DNA of 58,264 nt from Opitutaceae bacterium (GTDB taxonomy: Bacteria > Verrucomicrobiota > Verrucomicrobiia > Opitutales > Opitutaceae), in NCBI GenBank assembly GCA_016794625.1, contig JAEUGY010000031.1, forward strand, positions 1 through 58,264, written 5' to 3'. The notes below the pieces were generated by a model. It saw nothing but the letters and a program-made list of their open reading frames with translations, was not told the DNA's origin and searched no databases. Each line of letters opens with the position of its first letter. Position 1 is the stretch's first letter. The translations under genes were made by a program, and so were the position numbers. Positions 2,453 through 13,427 of the stretch are shown here, in pieces.

Positions 2453-4797
2453 GCCGATGCTTTTTGATTAAAGAGTTCGCGCTCCAGATCTTGGAGGGCG
2501 CTTTCGTAGTTCGCCTTACCGCCGAAGGCGTCGTTGATGATTTCGACGGGGGTGCCCATCGTATTGAAAGGGGTGAGCTTGAGAACCTTGGGGCTCTCGA
2601 TGGTGAGGATGCCCTCGTCGGCGTATTTATCCAGGAGGGCGTCGAGGACGGCGCGGGCCTTGGCGCCGTATCGGGTGAAGTAGTCTCGCTTCCGGACCTT
2701 GTCGGCGCGCTCCTTGCGCGTGAGCGGCGGCTGGTCGTAGGCGATGTGGCAGATCAAGTCAAAGTCGCCGTAATCCTTGCCGACCTCCTCGGCAAGTTTG
2801 GGCAGCTCGATGCCGTACTCTTCGAGCTCCTTTACGACGGCCTCCTTTTTCTTGGCGGCGTTCCACGTGGTGATGAAGTCGTCGAGGGAGGCGTATTCCT
2901 TGCGGATGTGCTTACGGCTGTAGTCGCGGTAGGACTCGGTGACCATGCGGCCGTCGTCGGCGCGGTATTCGACCGTTTTGGCGAGGATGTTGACCTCCAC
3001 GGCGCTGACATGGAGTTTTTTGGAGCCGTATACCGTTGGGTCTTCTTCGACCCCGTCATCATCTTGCTCGGGCGGGTCAGGCGGCACCGGATCATCGTCG
3101 GGATCGGGCTCGTAGATGACGACGGGGTCGCCGTCGAAGTCGGGGTCTTTGAAGAGCTCGGTGGCGTTTTTGAAATCCATCACGGTGAAGAAGAATTTGC
3201 CGAACTCTTCCTCGATGCGTGTGCCGCGACCGACGATCTGTTTGAACGTGGTCATGGAGTTGATGGTCTTGTCCAGGACGATGAGCTTGCAGGTCTTGGC
3301 GTCCACACCGGTGGTGAGCAGCTCGGAGGTGGTGGCGATGACCGGAAATCTGGACTCTGGGTCGATGAAGTTATCCAGCTCGGCCTTGCCCTCGACGCTG
3401 TCGCCGGTGATGCGCATGACGTATTTGGGATGGTCGAGCGCGAGGCGGCCGGCGGCGTTGGTGATGGCGACGCGCATGCGCTCGGCGTGGTCGATGTCCT
3501 CGCAGAAGATGATCGTCTTGGAAAACGGGTCCGTGGCCCGGAGAAGCTCCATGACACATTTGGCGACGAGCTTGGTGCGCTGGTTGAGCACCAAGATGCG
3601 ATCCATGTCGGCTTGGTTGTACGTGCGCTGCTCGATCTCGCGGCCGAGGTCGTCGGTCATGCCCGGCGGGGGCGTCCAGCCGATCAGATCCTTGTCGAGA
3701 TGATAGCGGACGACCTTGTAGGGAGCGAGGAAGCCATCCTCGATGCCCTGCTTGAGTTTGTAGGTGTAAACGGGCTCGCCGAAGTAAGTGATATTGGAGG
3801 CGTATTTCGTCTCCTTGGGCGTGGCGGTGAGGCCGATCTGGATGGCCCCGGAGAAGTAGTCGAGGATCTCGCGCCAAGCGGAATCATCGGCGGCGCTGCC
3901 CCGGTGACACTCGTCGATGATGATCAGATCGAAGAAGTCGGGGGAGACGTTTTTGAAGATCTTGTCCTCCTCGTCGGGACCGGTGATGGCCTGGTAGAGG
4001 CCGAGGTAAATTTCGTAAGACGGGTCGATCTTGCGGTTCTTGATCTTGGTCATGACCGCGCCGAACGGTTTGAAGTCGTTCACGAGCGTCTGGTCGGCGA
4101 GGATATTGCGATCGACAAGGAAGAGGGTGCGCTTGGACTTTTTGGCCTTCCAGAGACGCCAGATGATCTGGAAGGTGGTGTAGGTCTTGCCCGTGCCGGT
4201 GGCCATGACGAGCAGGAGGCGTTTCTGGCCTTTGGCGATGGCCTCCAACGTGCGATTGATGGCCTCGCTTTGGTAATAGCGCGGTTCCTTTCCGTAAGCG
4301 TCCACGTAATACGGCTCGAGGACGAGTTCCTCCTCGGCGTCCTTGATATTCCGGTGCTTTTTGTAGCGCTGCCAGAGATCGTCGGGGGCGGGAAAGGAAG
4401 TGAGCGGAAATTCGCATTCAATCTCTTCGCCTATGGCAGGGACCTTGTTGTGCGAGGCGAAGGCGTCGCCGTTGGAGCTGAAGGCGCTAGGGACGTTAAG
4501 AATACCCGCGTAGCCCAGAGCTTGTTGAAGGCCGTGGCTGACGGTGTGATGGTTGTCCTTGGCCTCGACAATGGCGATGGGGACGCCTGCTTCTCGGAGC
4601 AAAACGTAGTCGGCGAATTTCTTCTTCTTTTTGTTCCGCGACGACATGTTGCCCCGGACGACGACAGGGCCGGGCGTCAAAGTAACCTCTCGGCGAATCT
4701 GAGTCAGCTGATTCCATCCGGCGTCCTTGATCGCGGGAGTGATGAAGAGATCGCAGATGTCGGATTCACTCAGCTGCTGTTTCTCTTTGTTCGTCAT
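2449..4797 (-). CDS. hsdR: Type I restriction enzyme R subunit (ATP-dependent translocase/endonuclease)
   Basis: This 782-residue protein is an intact HsdR of the EcoEI-like group. The N-terminal PD-(D/E)xK nuclease shows FADYVLL followed by AIVEAKD. The superfamily 2 helicase core shows Walker A ATGTGKTYTT, DECHRG for motif II, a TATP motif III, and QIVGRGTR for motif VI. A C-terminal helical domain follows. It is first in an operon with hsdM, sharing an ATGA overlap. Because HsdR cuts only as part of an HsdR2M2S complex, the IS insertion in hsdM should silence restriction unless a second M/S pair exists elsewhere. Confidence 0.93.
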   Translation of the reverse strand: MTNKEKQQLSESDICDLFITPAIKDAGWNQLTQIRREVTLTPGPVVVRGNMSSRNKKKKKFADYVLLREAGVPIAIVEAKDNHHTVSHGLQQALGYAGILNVPSAFSSNGDAFASHNKVPAIGEEIECEFPLTSFPAPDDLWQRYKKHRNIKDAEEELVLEPYYVDAYGKEPRYYQSEAINRTLEAIAKGQKRLLLVMATGTGKTYTTFQIIWRLWKAKKSKRTLFLVDRNILADQTLVNDFKPFGAVMTKIKNRKIDPSYEIYLGLYQAITGPDEEDKIFKNVSPDFFDLIIIDECHRGSAADDSAWREILDYFSGAIQIGLTATPKETKYASNITYFGEPVYTYKLKQGIEDGFLAPYKVVRYHLDKDLIGWTPPPGMTDDLGREIEQRTYNQADMDRILVLNQRTKLVAKCVMELLRATDPFSKTIIFCEDIDHAERMRVAITNAAGRLALDHPKYVMRITGDSVEGKAELDNFIDPESRFPVIATTSELLTTGVDAKTCKLIVLDKTINSMTTFKQIVGRGTRIEEEFGKFFFTVMDFKNATELFKDPDFDGDPVVIYEPDPDDDPVPPDPPEQDDDGVEEDPTVYGSKKLHVSAVEVNILAKTVEYRADDGRMVTESYRDYSRKHIRKEYASLDDFITTWNAAKKKEAVVKELEEYGIELPKLAEEVGKDYGDFDLICHIAYDQPPLTRKERADKVRKRDYFTRYGAKARAVLDALLDKYADEGILTIESPKVLKLTPFNTMGTPVEIINDAFGGKANYESALQDLERELFNQKASA

Positions 4798-5548: not shown

Positions 5549-6337
5549 ATGAGCGCGAATTCCAAGATTGAATGGACGGATTCTACCTGGAATCCGGTTC
5601 GGGGGTGCACGAAGATCAGCCCGGGGTGTAAGCATTGTTATGCGGAGACGTTTGCGGAGCGATTCCGCGGGACGCCGGGGCACCCGTTCGAGCACGGTTT
5701 TGACCTTCGTTTGGTGCCGGAGAAGTTGGGCGATCCCGTCCGGTGGGGAACGCCTCGGAAAATTTTCGTCAACTCGATGAGCGACCTATTTCATCCCGAG
5801 GTCCCGGATAGTTATGTGGAGCAGGTGTGTCGCGTCATGCTCGCCGCGAATTGGCACACGTACCAAGTCCTCACGAAACGCGGGGAACGGATGAGCCAGT
5901 TGCTCCAGACAAAACTCAAGAAAGCGGCGAGCGCTTCCCATATCTGGTGGGGTGTCAGTGTGGAGAACAAGACTCACGGGCTTCCACGCATCGACCAGCT
6001 GCGGGAGGCGAACACCGCGGTTGCCTTCCTGTCCATCGAGCCGCTTCTGGAGGACTTGGGAGCGGTTAATCTTGAAGGGATTCATTGGGTGATCGTGGGC
6101 GGTGAAAGCGGTCACGGCGCGAGACCCATCGACGCCCAGTGGGTCCGGTCGATCCGGGCACAATGCCGAACACAACGTGTGCCGTTCTTTTTTAAACAGT
6201 GGGGCGGGGTACGAAAATCGGCCGCCGGCCGTGAGCTCGATGGGAAGACGTACGACGAGTTCCCTACGATGGTGGAGACCCGCGTACCTCCATCGGAGAC
6301 CCGCCTTAAGCTTTTGCATTCGCTGATGGAAGCGTGA
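5549..6337 (+). CDS. DUF5131 (phage Gp37/Gp68) three-Cys-motif protein
   Basis: This 262-residue protein opens with SKIEWTDSTWNPVRGC, the hallmark of the phage Gp37/Gp68 (DUF5131) family. The three-cysteine motif is C-x6-C-x2-C (CTKISPGCKHC), as in radical-SAM-like proteins that bind a 4Fe-4S cluster. Later family blocks are VNSMSDLFHPEVP, VLTKRGERM, WWGVSVEN, IVGGESGHGARP and FFFKQWGG. No reaction is established for the family. The next gene, tcmP, begins 3 bp after the stop, and these two families habitually occur together in mobile and defence-rich regions. Here they sit beside a type I restriction locus. Confidence 0.9.
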   Translation: MSANSKIEWTDSTWNPVRGCTKISPGCKHCYAETFAERFRGTPGHPFEHGFDLRLVPEKLGDPVRWGTPRKIFVNSMSDLFHPEVPDSYVEQVCRVMLAANWHTYQVLTKRGERMSQLLQTKLKKAASASHIWWGVSVENKTHGLPRIDQLREANTAVAFLSIEPLLEDLGAVNLEGIHWVIVGGESGHGARPIDAQWVRSIRAQCRTQRVPFFFKQWGGVRKSAAGRELDGKTYDEFPTMVETRVPPSETRLKLLHSLMEA

Positions 6338-6340
6338 GTT

Positions 6341-7531
6341 ATGTCCGACTGCTTCGACGTCAATTACGCCGGTCGTGAGCAGTCGCAGATCAAGCATATC
6401 ATTCTCGAGAAGTATCTGGAACGTTTTGCCGTCATCACGGGGAAGTGGTGTAGTGGCATCATCTATGTCGATGGATTCTCGGGTCCATGGAATGTTCAGT
6501 CGGAAAGTCTCGACGATGCGTCGTTCTCAATCGCCGTTCGGCAATTGCGGCGCGCTCGAGATACGGTCCGGACAACATTCAAAAAGGACCTTCAGGTTAA
6601 ATGTCTCTTCCTTGAGAAAGACCCACACGCGTTCGAGCGCTTGAAGACTTTTGCCGCTGCGCAGAAGGACGTTGATGTCGTCGCACTCAACCAAGAATTT
6701 GAACGTGCCATCCCGGAGTTGGTGAACCGAATCAAGGCGGCAGGAACCGGCTACTTCCCGTTCATCTTTATCGATCCCACAGGCTGGAAGGGTTTCGCCA
6801 TGAATACCATTGCGCCTCTTCTACGGCTCCAACCCAGTGAGGTACTGGTAAACTTCATGACCGGGTTTATCGTTAGATTTGCAGAAGATGCTCGCGCGGG
6901 AATTGACGCCAGCTTTCAGGAGACGTTCGGCGACGCGGAGTTTCGTGAATGTATCCGAGGGTTGGTCGGGCCGAGCCGTGAGGATGCTCTCGTGTTTGAG
7001 TATGCTCGTCGAATCTCCCAAACAGGGAACTTCCGGTTCACCCCAGTAACCGTAGTGCCACATCCAACGAAGGATCGAACTCATTTTCATTTGGTCTACG
7101 GGACGCGTCATATCCGCGGGCTCCAAGTCTTCAAAGAGGCCGAGCGTAGTGCGCTGAATATGACGGGGCGTATTCGGGGAGAGGCCAAGCGACGGGAGCG
7201 AGAGGCGCGCTCAGGACAACCTGAATTTTTTGGCGGTGCCGACTTCCCTGATGCGGACTATGTGGGGGCGCTGAGCACGCGCTACCAGACTCAAGCCCGT
7301 GAAGCGGTCCATCACCTGATACGCACTAAAAAGGAGCTGAGCTTCGATGACGTTTGCGGGACTGCGCTGGCCTATCCCACCGTTCAATTGGACTCAGCTC
7401 GCGCATGGGTGAACGAAATCGCGGATGTCGCGAATCTCGGTCCGCTCGAGCGAGTGGCGAAAATGGACGCTGGTCATCGGGTGAAGCTGCGAGAATCGAG
7501 CAATCGTGGAGAGCTAAATTTGGGATCGTGA
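6341..7531 (+). CDS. tcmP: Three-Cys-motif partner protein TcmP
   Basis: This 396-residue protein begins with a typical TcmP segment: QSQIKHIILEKYLERF, then YVDGFSGPW. It continues with FLEKDP, FIFIDPTGWKG and VLVNFMTGF, a Rossmann-like methyltransferase-type arrangement without a proven activity. TcmP is named for its constant genomic pairing with the three-Cys DUF5131 protein, which immediately precedes it here. The two form a two-gene operon. The C-terminus (from about residue 285) is basic and probably helical. A role in defence or nucleic acid modification is only a guess from neighbourhood. Confidence 0.85.
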   Translation: MSDCFDVNYAGREQSQIKHIILEKYLERFAVITGKWCSGIIYVDGFSGPWNVQSESLDDASFSIAVRQLRRARDTVRTTFKKDLQVKCLFLEKDPHAFERLKTFAAAQKDVDVVALNQEFERAIPELVNRIKAAGTGYFPFIFIDPTGWKGFAMNTIAPLLRLQPSEVLVNFMTGFIVRFAEDARAGIDASFQETFGDAEFRECIRGLVGPSREDALVFEYARRISQTGNFRFTPVTVVPHPTKDRTHFHLVYGTRHIRGLQVFKEAERSALNMTGRIRGEAKRREREARSGQPEFFGGADFPDADYVGALSTRYQTQAREAVHHLIRTKKELSFDDVCGTALAYPTVQLDSARAWVNEIADVANLGPLERVAKMDAGHRVKLRESSNRGELNLGS

Positions 7532-10541: not shown

Positions 10542-11453
10542 CTAGGGGATCGTGAGGGCGTGCTGCAGCCTCGCGGCGATCTTGGCGGCATTGGGGCGGA
10601 CGCGGATCAGGCGCGGGTTCCAGGCGAGCATGGCTTCGCGGTTGAGCGGCGCGAGGGAGGCGTCTTCCAGGCGTTGCGCTGCGCCGGTTGGCAGGTCGCG
10701 GGTGGCGAGTTCGGGCAGGATCGTCCAGAAGCTGCCGGATCTGAGGGCGGCCATGGTTTGGGGGAAGGACTGGCACGCGAGCGCGGGACGGAGCGGCACC
10801 TGGAGTGTCTTGGCGATGGCCCGGAGTCCGGAAGTGAATTGGCCGTCGGTGGTTTGTGTGGCGAGGGGCAGCTCGGCGAGCGCTTGGCGGAGGGTGAGCT
10901 TCTTCTTGGTCCGCGCCAGAGGCTCCGGCACGAGGGCGACGTAGCGGACGATGCCGAGGGACACCGCCTTCAGGCCCGGCGCCAGGGCGTTCTTGCGGAT
11001 GATGCCGAAATCGAGGCGGCCTTCGGCCAGCTGTTGCACGATTTCCTGGGTGCGGAGGTTGAGGGTCGCGAATCGTGTGCCGGGAAACGCATCGATGATT
11101 GTTCCAAGTCGGGGGATCACGAGCCATTGAATCAGGCTGTCGCCGGCACCGAGGGTGAAGGCGACGTTGGTCTGTTTGCACTCGGCACGGAAGTCGTCGA
11201 GCGATCGCAGCTGTTCGCGGGCCAGCTCGGCGAGGCGCTCTCCTTGCTCGGTCAGCTTGAGCAGTTTCCCGCGGCGCTGCGCGACCTCACAGCCGAAAAA
11301 CTCCGACAGCTCGCGCAACTGCCGGCTGTATTGGCTCTGTCGCACGGGATCGCCCGGAGCGGCCTGGGCAATGCTGCCGGCATCGCGCACTTCGATCAAC
11401 ACCTTCAAGCGGTCGAGCGAGAGGCCACGCTCGGAAAACAGGGTTTCAAACAT
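10542..11453 (-). CDS. LysR-family transcriptional regulator
   Basis: A 303-residue regulator. The N-terminal winged helix-turn-helix covers roughly residues 12-70 (LKVLIEVRDAGSIAQAA, then SQYSRQLRELSEFFGCEV). The rest is a periplasmic-binding-protein-like effector domain (LRTQEIVQQLAEGRLDFGIIR). The open frame extends to 11645, but the start at 11453 gives the normal family N-terminus. It is transcribed away from the Y RNA/Ro60 locus. A TGCCACG/CGTGGCA inverted repeat lies 18 bp upstream of the start. The target is unknown; control of the divergent Ro60 locus is a possibility from geometry alone. Confidence 0.85.
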   Translation of the reverse strand: MFETLFSERGLSLDRLKVLIEVRDAGSIAQAAPGDPVRQSQYSRQLRELSEFFGCEVAQRRGKLLKLTEQGERLAELAREQLRSLDDFRAECKQTNVAFTLGAGDSLIQWLVIPRLGTIIDAFPGTRFATLNLRTQEIVQQLAEGRLDFGIIRKNALAPGLKAVSLGIVRYVALVPEPLARTKKKLTLRQALAELPLATQTTDGQFTSGLRAIAKTLQVPLRPALACQSFPQTMAALRSGSFWTILPELATRDLPTGAAQRLEDASLAPLNREAMLAWNPRLIRVRPNAAKIAARLQHALTIP

Positions 11454-11470
11454 GATTAAAGAGTCAGGTA

Positions 11471-11492
11471 TGCCACGAGAACTCCCGTGGCA
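11471..11492. promoter_or_regulatory. Inverted repeat TGCCACG-N8-CGTGGCA upstream of the LysR gene
   Basis: The perfect 7-bp arms have the dyad form of a LysR-type recognition box (T-N-A with interrupted symmetry) and lie 18-39 bp from the regulator's start, where autoregulation sites occur. It could also influence divergent transcription towards the Y RNAs. Confidence 0.4.
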
Positions 11493-11677
11493 ACGAAATC
11501 CCGTTTCGGCTAGACTGGCTTCGCATTCAGATGGCCCACACTCGCCAGGATACGCTGACCGCTCCTCCCGTTTGGTTTCGACCCTGGTACAAGCGCAACG
11601 TTGCCAAGCGAGAACGTCGGGCCGCCCGGAAGCACATCCAAACATTCCTCTTCAATCCAAATTCCAAAGCCAATCTT

Positions 11678-11768
11678 TCTGGGTAGTGAGGGTGAAGTTA
11701 CTTCGCTGAAATCGAAATCCAATGCCGCGGCGCGAGCCACGGCGACCTTCGCCTGAGTTTCTCCCAGA
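11678..11768 (+). ncRNA. Y-like RNA 1 (no tRNA mimic), tandem paralogue upstream of yrlA
   Basis: About 91 nt fold into an outer helix TCTGGG (11678-11683)/CCCAGA (11763-11768), an internal loop TAGTGAG (11684-11690) opposite TGAGTTTCT (11754-11762), and an inner helix GGTGAAG (11691-11697)/CTTCGCC (11747-11753). TTACTTC follows. The distal loop holds a hairpin GCCG/CGGC at 724-727/740-743 with inner GG/CC. The order, lengths (7-nt loop, 7-bp helix, 9-nt loop) and loop sequences match Y-like RNA 2 exactly 100 bp downstream, although the paired bases differ. That pattern of covariation argues for a selected RNA. It lacks recognisable T and D arms. Ends are inferred from pairing. Confidence 0.65.
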
Positions 11769-11776
11769 GTTCCCTT

Positions 11777-11910
11777 TTGCGGGCAGTGAGTCCTCGGTTA
11801 CTTCTAACCTGTCGGTCGGCGGTTCAAGTCCGTCCGCGCTTCGGCGCGTAGCTCAGTGGTAGAGCAACAGCGGTCGCAAGACCGTTCCCGAGGGCAGTGT
11901 TCTCCCGCAA
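11777..11910 (+). ncRNA. yrlA: Y RNA with tRNA-like module (YrlA-like)
   Basis: About 134 nt. The outer helix is TTGCGGG (11777-11783)/CCCGCAA (11904-11910). The internal loop CAGTGAG (11784-11790) faces CAGTGTTCT (11895-11903). The inner helix is TCCTCGG (11791-11797)/CCGAGGG (11888-11894). The apical part is a tRNA mimic at 11809-11870, followed by a CGGTC-GCAA-GACCG hairpin (11871-11884). Bacterial Y RNAs studied by Wolin and colleagues bind Ro60 orthologues through the end-pairing stem and carry a tRNA-like module. The gene lies 77 bp before the Ro60 start on the same strand. RNA ends are inferred from pairing. Confidence 0.85.
11809..11870 (+). other. Circularly permuted tRNA-like module of the Y RNA
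   Basis: The order is 3' half first, then 5' half. CTGT (11809-11812) pairs with ACAG (11867-11870) as an anticodon-stem-like joint. The T arm is GGCGG-TTCAAGT-CCGTC (11818-11834) with a standard T loop. The acceptor-like stem CGCGC/GCGCG (11835-11839/11844-11848) is closed by a UUCG tetraloop. Then come TA (the usual positions 8-9) and the D arm GCTC-AGTGGTA-GAGC (11851-11865). A normal tRNA reading fails because no 3' acceptor strand or T arm follows. Confidence 0.85.
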
Positions 11911-11922
11911 TTACCACCGTGT

Positions 11923-11965
11923 CCCGGCGTCCGGGCTATCCGTCCCTGAGCGAATGCTCGGGGAC
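11923..11965 (+). other. Two leader hairpins between the Y RNA and the Ro60 start
   Basis: CCCGG-CGT-CCGGG (11923-11935) is followed by a 10-bp stem GTCCCTGAGC/GCTCGGGGAC with a GAAT loop (11942-11965). There is no T tract, so read-through into the Ro60 gene is expected. The hairpins may protect or separate the Y RNA from the mRNA by processing. The Ro60 ribosome-binding site begins 10 nt after the second stem. Confidence 0.5.
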
Positions 11966-11975
11966 CCAGTAAGAA

Positions 11976-11982
11976 AAGGAGG
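11976..11982 (+). promoter_or_regulatory. Strong Shine-Dalgarno AAGGAGG of the Ro60 gene
   Basis: A near-perfect ribosome-binding site sits 5 nt before the ATG at 11988 and fixes the start codon. Confidence 0.85.
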
Positions 11983-11987
11983 CCGTC

Positions 11988-13427
11988 ATGGCCAAGTTCA
12001 GTTCTCTCATTCCCCTGTCGCGCGGTGCGTCCGCGCCCAACACGGTCAATTTCGAAGGTGGCCGCGCCTTCACGCAGTCCGCCAAGCTCGAGCTGGTCTC
12101 GGTGCTGCTCACCACGTTTCTCGAGGACGCGTTCTATCGGACCGAGAAGCAGACCACGGAGAAGCTCCGTGAGCTGATCACGAAGGTGGGCGACCCGCGG
12201 TTCGTCGCGAAGGCGGCGCTCTACGCGCGCCATACCCACGGTATGCGCTCGGTGAGTCACCTCGTCGCCGGCGAGCTCGCCAAGTCCGTCAAGGGCGAGC
12301 GTTGGACGAAGCGCTTCTACGCCCAGATCGTGCGCCGCCCGGATGATGTCATGGAGACGCTCAGCTATTACCTCGCGGTTTACGGTCGGCCCGTGCCGAA
12401 CTCCCTGAAGAAGGGGCTCGGGGCGGCGCTGGCGCGGTTCGATGCGCACCAGGTCGCGAAGTACCGTCGCGAGCACGGAGCCTTCAAGATGGTGGACGCG
12501 GTCAACCTCGTCCACCCGAAGGCCACGCCGGCGCTCTCGCAGCTGGTGCGAGGTGAGCTCGCGCCCGCGCAGACGTGGGAGACGAAGCTGACCCAGGCCG
12601 GTGCCGCCGCCACGGCGGAGGTGGTCGCGGCGGCCAAGTCGCAGGCGTGGGGCGAGCTGGTGCGCGGGCGCAAACTGGGTTACCTCGCGCTGCTCCGCAA
12701 TGGGCGCAACATCCTGGCGCAGGCGCCGGAGGTGGTGGACGACCTTTGCCAGCAGCTCGCCGACGCGCGCGCAGTGCGCACGTCGCTGGTGTTTCCGTTC
12801 CAGTTCCTGTCCGCGGTCGAAGCGTTGAAGCAGGGCAACCTGTCCGGCGCCGACCGCGTGATGGACGCGTTGAACACGGCCATCGATCACTCGCTGGCCA
12901 ACGTGCCAACGTTTGCGGGCAGCACGCTCGTCGCGCTCGATTCGTCGGCCTCGATGATGGGGCACCCGCAGGCGATCGGTTCGCTGTTTGCCGCGACGCT
13001 GGTCAAGGCCACGGGTGCCGACCTGATGCTCTTCAGCGACGACGCCCGGTACGTCACGCTGAACCCCCGGGACACCACGCTCACGGCGGCGCAGAGCATC
13101 CCCTTCATCTCTGGTGGTACGAACTTCGAGGCGATCTTCCAGCGCGCGAACCGCGCTTATGACCGCATCGTGATCCTGTCGGACATGCAGGGATGGATGG
13201 ACGGCGGTGCGCCCGTGCAGCCGTTCGCCGACTACCAGGCCCGGTTCTCGGTCGCGACGCGCATCTTCAGCTTCGACCTGAACGGCTACGGCACGCTCCA
13301 GTTTCCGCAGGAGCGCGTGTACTGCCTGGCCGGTTGGAGCGACCGCGTGTTCGAGATCCTGCAGAAGCTCGACCGCGATCCGGAGGCGCTCGTTCGTGAG
13401 GTGGAGTCCGTCCCGCTGGAGGACTAA
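11988..13427 (+). CDS. rsr: Ro60/Rsr orthologue, TROVE-domain RNA-binding ring protein
   Basis: A 479-residue orthologue of the Ro 60-kDa autoantigen. The N-terminal two thirds are the HEAT-like TROVE ring that holds misfolded RNAs and Y RNA; visible blocks include FLEDAFYRTEKQT and FVAKAALYARHTHGMRSVSH. The C-terminal third is a von Willebrand A domain with a complete MIDAS metal site: DSSAS (318-322), Thr378 in GGTNF, and Asp399 in LSDMQGW. Known bacterial orthologues pair with Y RNAs to remodel exoribonucleases such as PNPase in rRNA maturation and stress-time RNA decay. Two Y-like RNAs lie directly upstream on the same strand. No RtcB ligase or archease gene is near, so this is a stand-alone Ro RNP locus. 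Confidence 0.95.
   Translation: MAKFSSLIPLSRGASAPNTVNFEGGRAFTQSAKLELVSVLLTTFLEDAFYRTEKQTTEKLRELITKVGDPRFVAKAALYARHTHGMRSVSHLVAGELAKSVKGERWTKRFYAQIVRRPDDVMETLSYYLAVYGRPVPNSLKKGLGAALARFDAHQVAKYRREHGAFKMVDAVNLVHPKATPALSQLVRGELAPAQTWETKLTQAGAAATAEVVAAAKSQAWGELVRGRKLGYLALLRNGRNILAQAPEVVDDLCQQLADARAVRTSLVFPFQFLSAVEALKQGNLSGADRVMDALNTAIDHSLANVPTFAGSTLVALDSSASMMGHPQAIGSLFAATLVKATGADLMLFSDDARYVTLNPRDTTLTAAQSIPFISGGTNFEAIFQRANRAYDRIVILSDMQGWMDGGAPVQPFADYQARFSVATRIFSFDLNGYGTLQFPQERVYCLAGWSDRVFEILQKLDRDPEALVREVESVPLED

What the first reader, a model, noticed from the sequence alone, without database searches (positions are those of the whole stretch)
11678..13427. Ro60 RNP locus with two tandem Y-like RNAs
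Two RNAs only 8 nt apart precede a complete TROVE/Ro60 gene. Both have outer helix ending GGG/CCC, 7-nt loop YAGTGAG opposite a 9-nt loop ending TTCT, a 7-bp inner helix, then TTACTTC. The helices have different sequences yet stay fully paired, i.e. compensatory change between paralogues. One copy has a tRNA-like effector module, the other not. Known bacterial loci usually show a YrlA RNA; a pair of shared-stem RNAs with different heads suggests that one Ro60 is loaded with alternative effectors. The conserved internal loop is the best candidate for the Ro60 contact.
Basis: partly seen in the sequence, partly recalled or inferred. Interest (0 to 1): 0.95.

Follow-up and report, generated by a model that had tools for sequence, protein, structure and literature searches.

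The report
Ro60 with interchangeable Y RNAs
This bacterial genome carries a gene for a Ro60-type RNA-handling protein next to two short sequences predicted to be its partner RNAs; they share one stem, the likely dock, but carry different heads, and relatives keep up to six such sequences in a row, so one protein likely changes tools by changing its RNA.

Summary
Window 11677-11769 and 11777-11910 are two tandem Y-RNA-type units before a TROVE/Ro60 gene (11988-13427): same outer helix design, YAGTGAG/9-nt internal loop, 7-bp inner helix and TTACTTC, with different but fully paired helices. Only the second has a permuted tRNA-like head. In 17 Opitutaceae Ro60 loci 63 of 69 motif copies have a paired 3' partner (33 of 3450 in shuffles), and up to six units with unlike heads stand together; 14 of 16 multi-unit loci mix tRNA-like and other heads. 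The bank usually lies in a tRNA array behind a divergent LysR gene; array tRNAs carry G55 (163 of 164). The window is a reduced form: no tRNAs, but LysR, a conserved promoter-like element, two units and Ro60 kept. The same stem occurs in viral contigs; 11 of 12 of these encode TROVE. The distal unit has the stem of a three-way-junction class but a trimmed head, shared with a second species. Most likely one Ro60 is loaded with alternative RNAs. Expression and binding are untested. Several Y RNAs per locus are known, so this is a new variant of a known kind.

The parts
10542..11453 (-). LysR-family regulator, divergent from the Y RNA/Ro60 genes
   Evidence: Pfam LysR_substrate 73.1 bits and HTH_1 36.8 bits (on 10542-11459); a LysR relative of 50-76% identity lies in the same divergent place in the 11 other Ro60 loci whose contig reaches that far
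11462..11473 (+). conserved element AGTCAGGTATGC in the LysR/Y RNA intergenic region; possible LysR site (inferred)
   Evidence: AGTCA lies 26 nt before the -35-like box in 13 of 13 loci with LysR
11488..11516 (+). promoter-like element: TGGCAA (11488-11493), 17 nt, TAGACT (11511-11516)
   Evidence: 13 of 13 loci have TGG[CA]A[AG], 16-17 nt, TANNNT at this place; 18 of 2600 shuffles do (pattern written after reading the 13 sequences). The strict sigma-70 scan finds no promoter here
11677..11769 (+). RNA1, distal Y-type unit: outer helix 11677-11683/11763-11769, loop TAGTGAG 11684-11690, inner helix 11691-11697/11747-11753, TTACTTC 11698-11704, 9-nt loop 11754-11762; head is one short hairpin
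   Evidence: sequence, fold, scanner, counterpart L001 5458-5545
11777..11910 (+). RNA2, proximal Y-type unit: outer helix 11777-11783/11904-11910, loop CAGTGAG 11784-11790, inner helix 11791-11797/11888-11894, TTACTTC 11798-11804, 9-nt loop 11895-11903
   Evidence: sequence, fold, scanner, YrlA match 11791-11897, 43.6 bits
11818..11865 (+). permuted tRNA-like head of RNA2: T arm 11818-11834 (loop TTCAAGT), capped acceptor-like helix 11835-11848, D arm 11851-11865 (loop AGTGGTA)
   Evidence: sequence and YrlA alignment
11923..11974 (+). two hairpins in the Ro60 leader (11923-11935 and about 11942-11965) before the ribosome site AAGGAGG 11976-11982
   Evidence: sequence; the second hairpin has a different but paired stem in L001
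11988..13427 (+). Ro60-family (TROVE) protein, 479 aa
   Evidence: PF05731 74.1 bits against a cut-off of 23; PDB TROVE protein 9l5y E 8e-26 over residues 7-467; dN/dS 0.13-0.22 against five relatives

Best explanation
The window holds a Ro60-family gene preceded by two tandem Y-RNA-type sequences that share one covarying stem and carry different heads, a permuted tRNA-like module on one and a short hairpin on the other, and the pair likely lets one Ro60 ring be loaded with alternative RNAs. Shown by sequence: the common stem with its conserved internal loop, the compensatory changes, the head difference, and the fact that relatives carry banks of up to six such units inside a tRNA array behind a divergent LysR gene, of which this locus is a reduced form. 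Inferred from studied Ro60/Y RNA particles: the stem docks on Ro60 and gates its cavity, while a head tethers a partner (a tRNA-like head binds PNPase or tRNA-modifying enzymes), so units with unlike heads would compete for one protein and steer it to different work. RNA2 would be the tethering form; RNA1, whose head is trimmed to a hairpin, would be a near stem-only form that loads Ro60 without that tether. A LysR-responsive promoter upstream of RNA1 probably transcribes both units and the Ro60 gene.
For: Both units have the same two-helix design with different paired helices. In 17 Opitutaceae loci 63 of 69 motifs have a 3' partner against 33 of 3450 in shuffles; over 41 distinct stems 273 of 287 inner-helix cells pair, with all four Watson-Crick pairs at several positions, while CAGTGAG/TAGTGAG, TTACTTC and the closing TTCT stay. 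Heads over 62 units: 37 with a canonical T arm, 2 with TGC T loops, 13 long non-tRNA heads, 10 short; 14 of 16 loci with two or more units mix tRNA-like and other heads. Units found by RNA pattern alone in IMG/VR predict the protein: 11 of 12 records with units encode TROVE, 10 over the Pfam cut-off, against 2 of 50 other records with the 5' pattern, one of which has two units by eye that the scanner missed (L080). In 387 genomes of the phylum the exact pattern occurs in 3: two have Ro60 and units, the third is a lone coding hit. Three loci (window, L219, L224), in different places of the Ro60 tree, have lost the tRNAs yet kept LysR, 2-3 units and Ro60. Ro60 is under purifying selection. From papers (passages only): Rsr binds the lower stem of bacterial Y RNAs (PMC4726728); the basal stem of YrlA holds Rsr and its tRNA-like domain binds PNPase (PMC8394870).
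Against: No expression or binding data. RNA1's head lacks the conserved core of the class whose stem it shares, so it may be decaying. RNA2 is below the Rfam YrlA gathering score and RNA1 has no Rfam match. RNA1's folding energy is not exceptional with wider flanks (z -1.8). The strict promoter scan finds nothing, and no terminator on the + strand. One viral record with a unit has no TROVE hit (L078). The scanner and the promoter pattern were fitted to these loci. Six of 69 motifs lack a partner at my threshold. In L219 both heads are tRNA-like, so mixed heads are not obligatory. Partner enzymes of the heads are not known here.
Confidence: 0.62

Rival explanations
1. Only RNA2 works. RNA1 is a decaying copy left when the array was lost; its stem survives by chance or for lack of time.
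For: RNA1's stem equals that of long-headed units (GGTGAAG/CTTCGCC in L027, L215, L218, L225, L227, also L028, L222, L223), but its head has lost their core. The window has lost the tRNAs and the other units.
Against: The same trimmed form is present in L001, whose Ro60 differs by 48% estimated synonymous divergence, with both helices paired and the hairpin GGCGCGAGCCACGGCG kept. Short-headed units occur elsewhere: 10 of 62.
Confidence: 0.22
2. The two stems act in cis, as leader elements of the Ro60 mRNA that Ro60 binds to control its own making; they are not free RNAs.
For: Both lie within 320 nt upstream of the start codon on the same strand, with two more hairpins in the leader. No separate promoter or terminator lies between them.
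Against: The tRNA-like head matches the known trans-acting YrlA RNA. In relatives units lie among tRNA genes, one 2.8 kb before Ro60 (L220 4945-5012); in the viral contig G394 motifs lie among tRNAs downstream of Ro60.
Confidence: 0.12
3. The heads are decoys: tRNA-like heads soak up nucleases or toxins that attack tRNA, and Ro60 merely stabilises them.
For: The units lie in tRNA arrays; 37 of 62 heads keep a canonical T arm while the neighbouring array tRNAs do not. A competitive-inhibitor role of the YrlA tRNA-like domain is proposed in PMC7790460 (passage).
Against: 23 of 62 heads have no T arm, and most tRNA-like heads lack an anticodon arm, the usual target of such nucleases (inferred from the sequences).
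Confidence: 0.2

Closest known systems
YrlA/YrlB Y RNAs of the Salmonella rsr-yrlBA-rtcBA operon and Rfam YrlA (RF02553)
   Same: Ro60 gene with adjacent Y RNAs; basal stem of two helices; a permuted tRNA-like head with T, acceptor-like and D arms in RNA2; two RNAs of which one carries the tRNA-like domain (YrlA). Sources: passages of PMC7790460 and PMC8394870.
   Different: Different internal-loop letters: YAGTGAG / TTACTTC / ...TTCT here, AATGC / ACTACAT / CTTGT in the classic Verrucomicrobiota YrlA copies. RtcB is not adjacent. LysR instead of RtcR (RtcR from PMC7790460). Below the Rfam gathering score.
Deinococcus radiodurans Rsr / Y RNA / PNPase particle (RYPER)
   Same: Ro60 ring with a Y RNA whose stem docks and whose head tethers a partner; the model used here for mechanism (PMC4726728 and PMC8394870, passages).
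   Different: Here several unlike heads per Ro60; the window protein misses the NCBIfam Rsr cut-off by far (23.8 against 900 bits); no PNPase link tested.
tRNA arrays: Anabaena trn operon, mycobacterial tRNA array units, archaeal tRNA clusters with TROVE
   Same: Long one-strand tRNA array with an HNH gene; archaeal clusters hold a TROVE gene in 20 of 29 (PMC6333295, one passage); the Anabaena array is induced under translational stress (PMC10272220, passages).
   Different: Opitutaceae array tRNAs carry G55 in 163 of 164; Nostoc and Mycolicibacterium arrays have TTC in 18 of 21, 19 of 20 and 29 of 29. Y units of this stem were not found in the two archaeal plasmid clusters checked, and the window itself has no tRNA.
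Phage-encoded TROVE proteins and putative Y RNAs
   Same: 92 phage records hold a TROVE relative; Listeria phage CKA15 makes three abundant RNAs near an Rsr-like gene and tRNAs (PMC12282133, passages).
   Different: The stem motif was not seen in the two parts of Listeria phage P100 fetched; the closest phage protein is 44.6% identical (LR745206).

Membership tests
Ro60/TROVE proteins | TROVE domain (PF05731) over the curated cut-off | tested here: met
   74.1 bits, cut-off 23; PHROG 850 RNA-binding protein 142.8 bits
Ro60/TROVE proteins | C-terminal vWA domain | tested here: inconclusive
   No Pfam vWA match for the window protein; the alignment to TROVE structures runs through that part (residues 7-467) and DSSAS is in the sequence (motif recalled as MIDAS-like)
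Rsr, NCBIfam NF041674 equivalog | score at or above the curated cut-off of 900 bits | tested here: not met
   23.8 bits
YrlA, Rfam RF02553 | score at or above the gathering score of 69 bits | tested here: not met
   RNA2 43.6 bits, RNA1 no match
YrlA, Rfam RF02553 | tRNA-like head with T, acceptor-like and D arms | tested here: met
   RNA2 11818-11865; not met by RNA1
bacterial Y RNA as a functional class | encoded next to a Ro60 gene, with a conserved two-helix basal stem | tested here: met
   both units; covariation over 41 stems
bacterial Y RNA as a functional class | RNA is expressed and bound by Ro60 through the stem | not testable with these tools
   needs small-RNA sequencing and pull-down
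RNA repair operon rsr-yrl-rtcBA | RtcB gene in the same operon | tested here: not met
   the one RtcB match in the genome is on another contig, G000:C109
tRNA array island (L-array) | long run of tRNA genes at the locus | tested here: not met
   0 tRNA genes in the window; met in relatives such as L001 with 21 and L002 with 24

The most novel reading that the evidence does not exclude
A programmable Ro60 with its own tRNA world: a swappable bank of Y RNAs (canonical tRNA-elbow heads, a T arm alone, a new three-way junction, stem-only) loads one Ro60 with different effectors, while the array's parallel tRNA set with the swapped elbow (A18-G55 in place of G18-U55) is invisible to whatever the canonical-elbow heads recruit. 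Under stress or phage attack the particle would act on ordinary tRNAs or their handlers while the swapped-elbow set keeps translation going; viral contigs and bacterial chromosomes exchange the whole device, and the window keeps its stripped core.
Probability: 0.2. Interest if true: 0.93.

Novelty: new variant of a known kind. Interest (0 to 1): 0.78.

Why it matters
What bacterial Ro60 particles do, and why a genome would keep several Y RNAs, is open. A set of natural units with one constant stem and unlike heads separates the dock from the effector and gives ready-made pairs for swap experiments. It also points to a head fold absent from Rfam at threshold, and ties Ro60 to tRNA arrays with an altered elbow, so that the old suspicion that Y RNAs work on tRNA or tRNA enzymes becomes directly testable.

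Tried and rejected
Rejected: chance similarity. A free-standing duplication of this genome. A 51-codon reading frame 11532-11685 ending in RNA1: the frame I translated was off by one base, so its tblastn says nothing; the frame was left unexamined. The G223 pattern hit: coding sequence without a unit. Resemblance of GGYAGTGAG to vertebrate Y RNA: recalled only, and PMC4726728 states that bacterial Y RNAs are not homologous to vertebrate ones, so not used. A search of viral contigs with the Ro60 protein found no relative. The P100 regions gave no unit. Two archaeal plasmid clusters gave no unit.

Limits. The Ro60 tree (30 rows) puts the 14 rows with the new stem and the 11 with classic YrlA on two sides of one branch, but that branch is very long, so it does not prove co-evolution of stem and protein; one new-stem row (vG389) falls with crAss-like phage rows. 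Of 21 family genomes with Ro60, 17 loci were counted; G538 and G569 (33-34% identity) were looked at but left out of counts, G582 and G555 (protein cut by the contig end) were not fetched, and L214 and L217 repeat L001 and L002. For one search I chose 12 of the records by eye from the first scan, leaving out eight loci (L046, L058, L084, L086, L092, L094, L096, L104) that carry one repeated, coding-looking sequence with many G-U pairs; the second scan did not report them; four of them were (0 TROVE). Seventeen of the 79 pattern records were tested for TROVE in neither call. Three of the 12 records (L065, L066, L077) carry the same array. In one search tRNAs on the minus strand and those overlapping units were dropped, and the D loop was assigned by my own rule. 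Head classes are regular expressions; by eye L028 and L222 belong with class B2.
Full report
What is there. The window carries a Ro60-family gene (11988-13427, PF05731 74.1 bits) preceded by two tandem structured units, RNA1 (11677-11769) and RNA2 (11777-11910), 7 nt apart. Each has an outer helix ending GGG/CCC, a 7-nt loop YAGTGAG facing a 9-nt loop ending TTCT, a 7-bp inner helix, then TTACTTC and a head. The helices differ in sequence and stay fully paired. RNA2's head is a permuted tRNA-like module (T arm, capped acceptor-like helix, D arm) and gives an Rfam YrlA match of 43.6 bits, below the gathering score of 69; RNA1 has no Rfam match. Folding supports both designs, RNA1 less strongly when wider flanks are included. 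ARAGORN finds no tRNA in the window.

Not chance. A scanner for the complete design finds no unit in 1.07 Mb of Markov-shuffled sequence. With real 5' motifs and shuffled downstream sequence 33 of 3450 trials give a partner, against 63 of 69 real motifs in 17 Opitutaceae loci. Over 41 distinct stems 273 of 287 inner-helix cells pair, with strong covariation, while the loop letters stay. The scanner was designed on these loci, so this is not blind. An independent test is the viral collection: the 23-base 5' pattern alone (79 records) was sorted by presence of the full unit; 11 of 12 records with units encode TROVE (10 over the Pfam cut-off), 2 of 50 without. Of those two, L080 has two units that the scanner missed and L036's pattern hit looks like chance, while the Ro60 of that contig has variant units (by eye). 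One record with a unit, L078, shows no TROVE. Three of the 12 are near-copies of one array.

Relatives. Ro60 relatives at E <= 1e-20 occur in 21 of 252 Opitutaceae genomes. The maps of 17 loci hold 62 units, from one (a cut contig) to six per locus. Where the contig reaches far enough (12 of 17) a LysR gene lies divergently upstream, and 10 loci have an HNH gene downstream. Twelve loci hold tRNA genes, up to some two dozen, on the same strand and with short spacers; units can lie among them (L220 4945-5012; L001, where a tRNA-like stretch separates the first two units). G099 has LysR, 25 array tRNAs and HNH but no Ro60: there tRNA-Thr(tgt) and tRNA-Arg(gcg) are 5 nt apart, the place where the whole Y/Ro60 cassette sits in L002. 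Window, L219 and L224 have LysR, 2-3 units and Ro60 with no tRNA; they lie in three places of a Ro60 tree, the window beside L001 and L219 beside L215, both of which have full arrays. So tRNAs were lost repeatedly while units and Ro60 stayed. A remnant array with an HNH gene lies on another contig of the window's genome (C49).

Promoter. In 13 of 13 loci with LysR an AGTCA element lies 26 nt before TGG[CA]A[AG], 16-17 nt, TANNNT; 18 of 2600 shuffles show the box pair. In the window this is 11462 and 11488-11516. The pattern was written after reading the sequences, and the strict sigma-70 scan finds nothing.

Heads. Of 62 heads, 37 carry a T arm with TTC, 2 with TGC, 13 are long and not tRNA-like, 10 are short; 14 of 16 loci with two or more units mix tRNA-like and other heads. 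Ten of the long heads share a three-way junction with an invariant core (TGCRA..ACGAGCG ... GGAARGGC); RNAalifold gives 28 pairs, 15 with changes on both sides; Rfam has no match near threshold (18.1 bits against 37.8). RNA1 has the stem of this class (GGTGAAG/CTTCGCC, as in L027, L215, L218, L225, L227) but only one hairpin of its head. L001 5458-5545 has the same trimmed form. In L028, L222 and L223 one head is permuted at another point and includes an anticodon arm, so that ARAGORN calls a tRNA inside it in L028 and L222.

How it most likely works. Shown: common stem, covariation, head diversity, retention. Inferred from studied particles (passages of PMC4726728, and PMC8394870): the basal stem binds the Ro60 ring and the tRNA-like head binds PNPase and tRNA-modifying enzymes. 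Units with unlike heads would then give one Ro60 alternative partners. In the window RNA2 would tether and RNA1 would occupy Ro60 without that tether. Purifying selection on Ro60 (dN/dS 0.128 against L001, 0.14-0.22 against four others) fits a working protein.

The tRNA setting. 163 of 164 array tRNAs of 14 loci have G at position 55 and 151 lack the D-loop GG; the 28 housekeeping tRNAs of the window's genome have 0 and 1. Nostoc and Mycolicibacterium arrays are canonical in 18 of 21, 19 of 20 and 29 of 29. The viral contig G394, whose near-copy carries the Ro60 that is sister to the Opitutaceae ones (97/99), has 18 of 18 tRNAs with G55, together with units and Ro60; other viral contigs near Ro60 do not (L050 5 of 5 and L138 3 of 3 TTC; L115 five TTC and four TCC). 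The Y heads keep the canonical T loop. This is the basis of the novel case, which is speculative.

What is known. Multiple Y RNAs per Ro60 locus are in print (yrlBA, PMC7790460) and seen here in 10 of 11 other Verrucomicrobiota loci with YrlA. TROVE genes in archaeal tRNA clusters are in print (20 of 29, PMC6333295). Chen 2014 and the Sim and Wolin reviews are not held; from memory, Chen 2014 reports that at least one Y RNA per species has a tRNA-like domain. In ten paper searches I met no report of head-diverse Y RNA banks in tRNA arrays or of G55 array tRNAs; most subscription papers are outside that library.

Verdict. It is a new variant of a known kind, with expression and binding untested.

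Noticed in passing
L001, L002, L027, L028, L215, L216, L218, L220, L222, L223, L225, L227, L189, L172 (array tRNAs): 163 of 164 array tRNAs carry G55 and 151 lack the D-loop GG, against 0 and 1 of 28 housekeeping tRNAs in the window's genome: a near-complete parallel tRNA set (18 isotypes) with a swapped elbow.
   Followed up: partly
L233 (viral contig G394:C1:156000-172000): 18 tRNAs, 18 of 18 with G55, together with Ro60 and Y-motif copies; links the swapped elbow to a viral contig.
   Followed up: partly
L227:1859-2008 and nine others: Long Y heads with a covarying three-way junction and an invariant core, no Rfam match near threshold.
   Followed up: partly
L189:7410-13355 (G099): LysR, 25 array tRNAs and HNH without Ro60 or Y units; tRNA-Thr and tRNA-Arg 5 nt apart where relatives hold the cassette.
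   Followed up: yes
L172:1532-2164 (G000:C49): HNH gene ending the remnant tRNA array; its HNH part resembles that of Cas9d and IscB below the curated cut-offs.
   Followed up: no
L136:3461-3592 and 3749-3878; L137:896-963: crAss-like phage csAssE and haloarchaeal virus HGTV-1 have units of the same design with variant loops (TGGTGAT, ACGACG) next to TROVE.
   Followed up: partly
L133:11001-12010 (LR745206, 634-kb phage): By eye, Y-type units before the closest phage Ro60 (44.6% identity); the scanner missed them.
   Followed up: no
L008-L018: 10 of 11 other Verrucomicrobiota Ro60 loci hold 2-5 tandem YrlA matches, up to five in L016.
   Followed up: partly
window 5549-7531: DUF5131 gene (PF07505) followed at once by a 396-aa frame without a Pfam match; possibly a mobile or defence pair (recalled).
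   Followed up: no
L237:16528-23091 (Listeria phage P100): RNA-binding protein gene on one strand with an annotated tRNA splicing ligase and an RNA ligase, beside a tRNA cluster.
   Followed up: no
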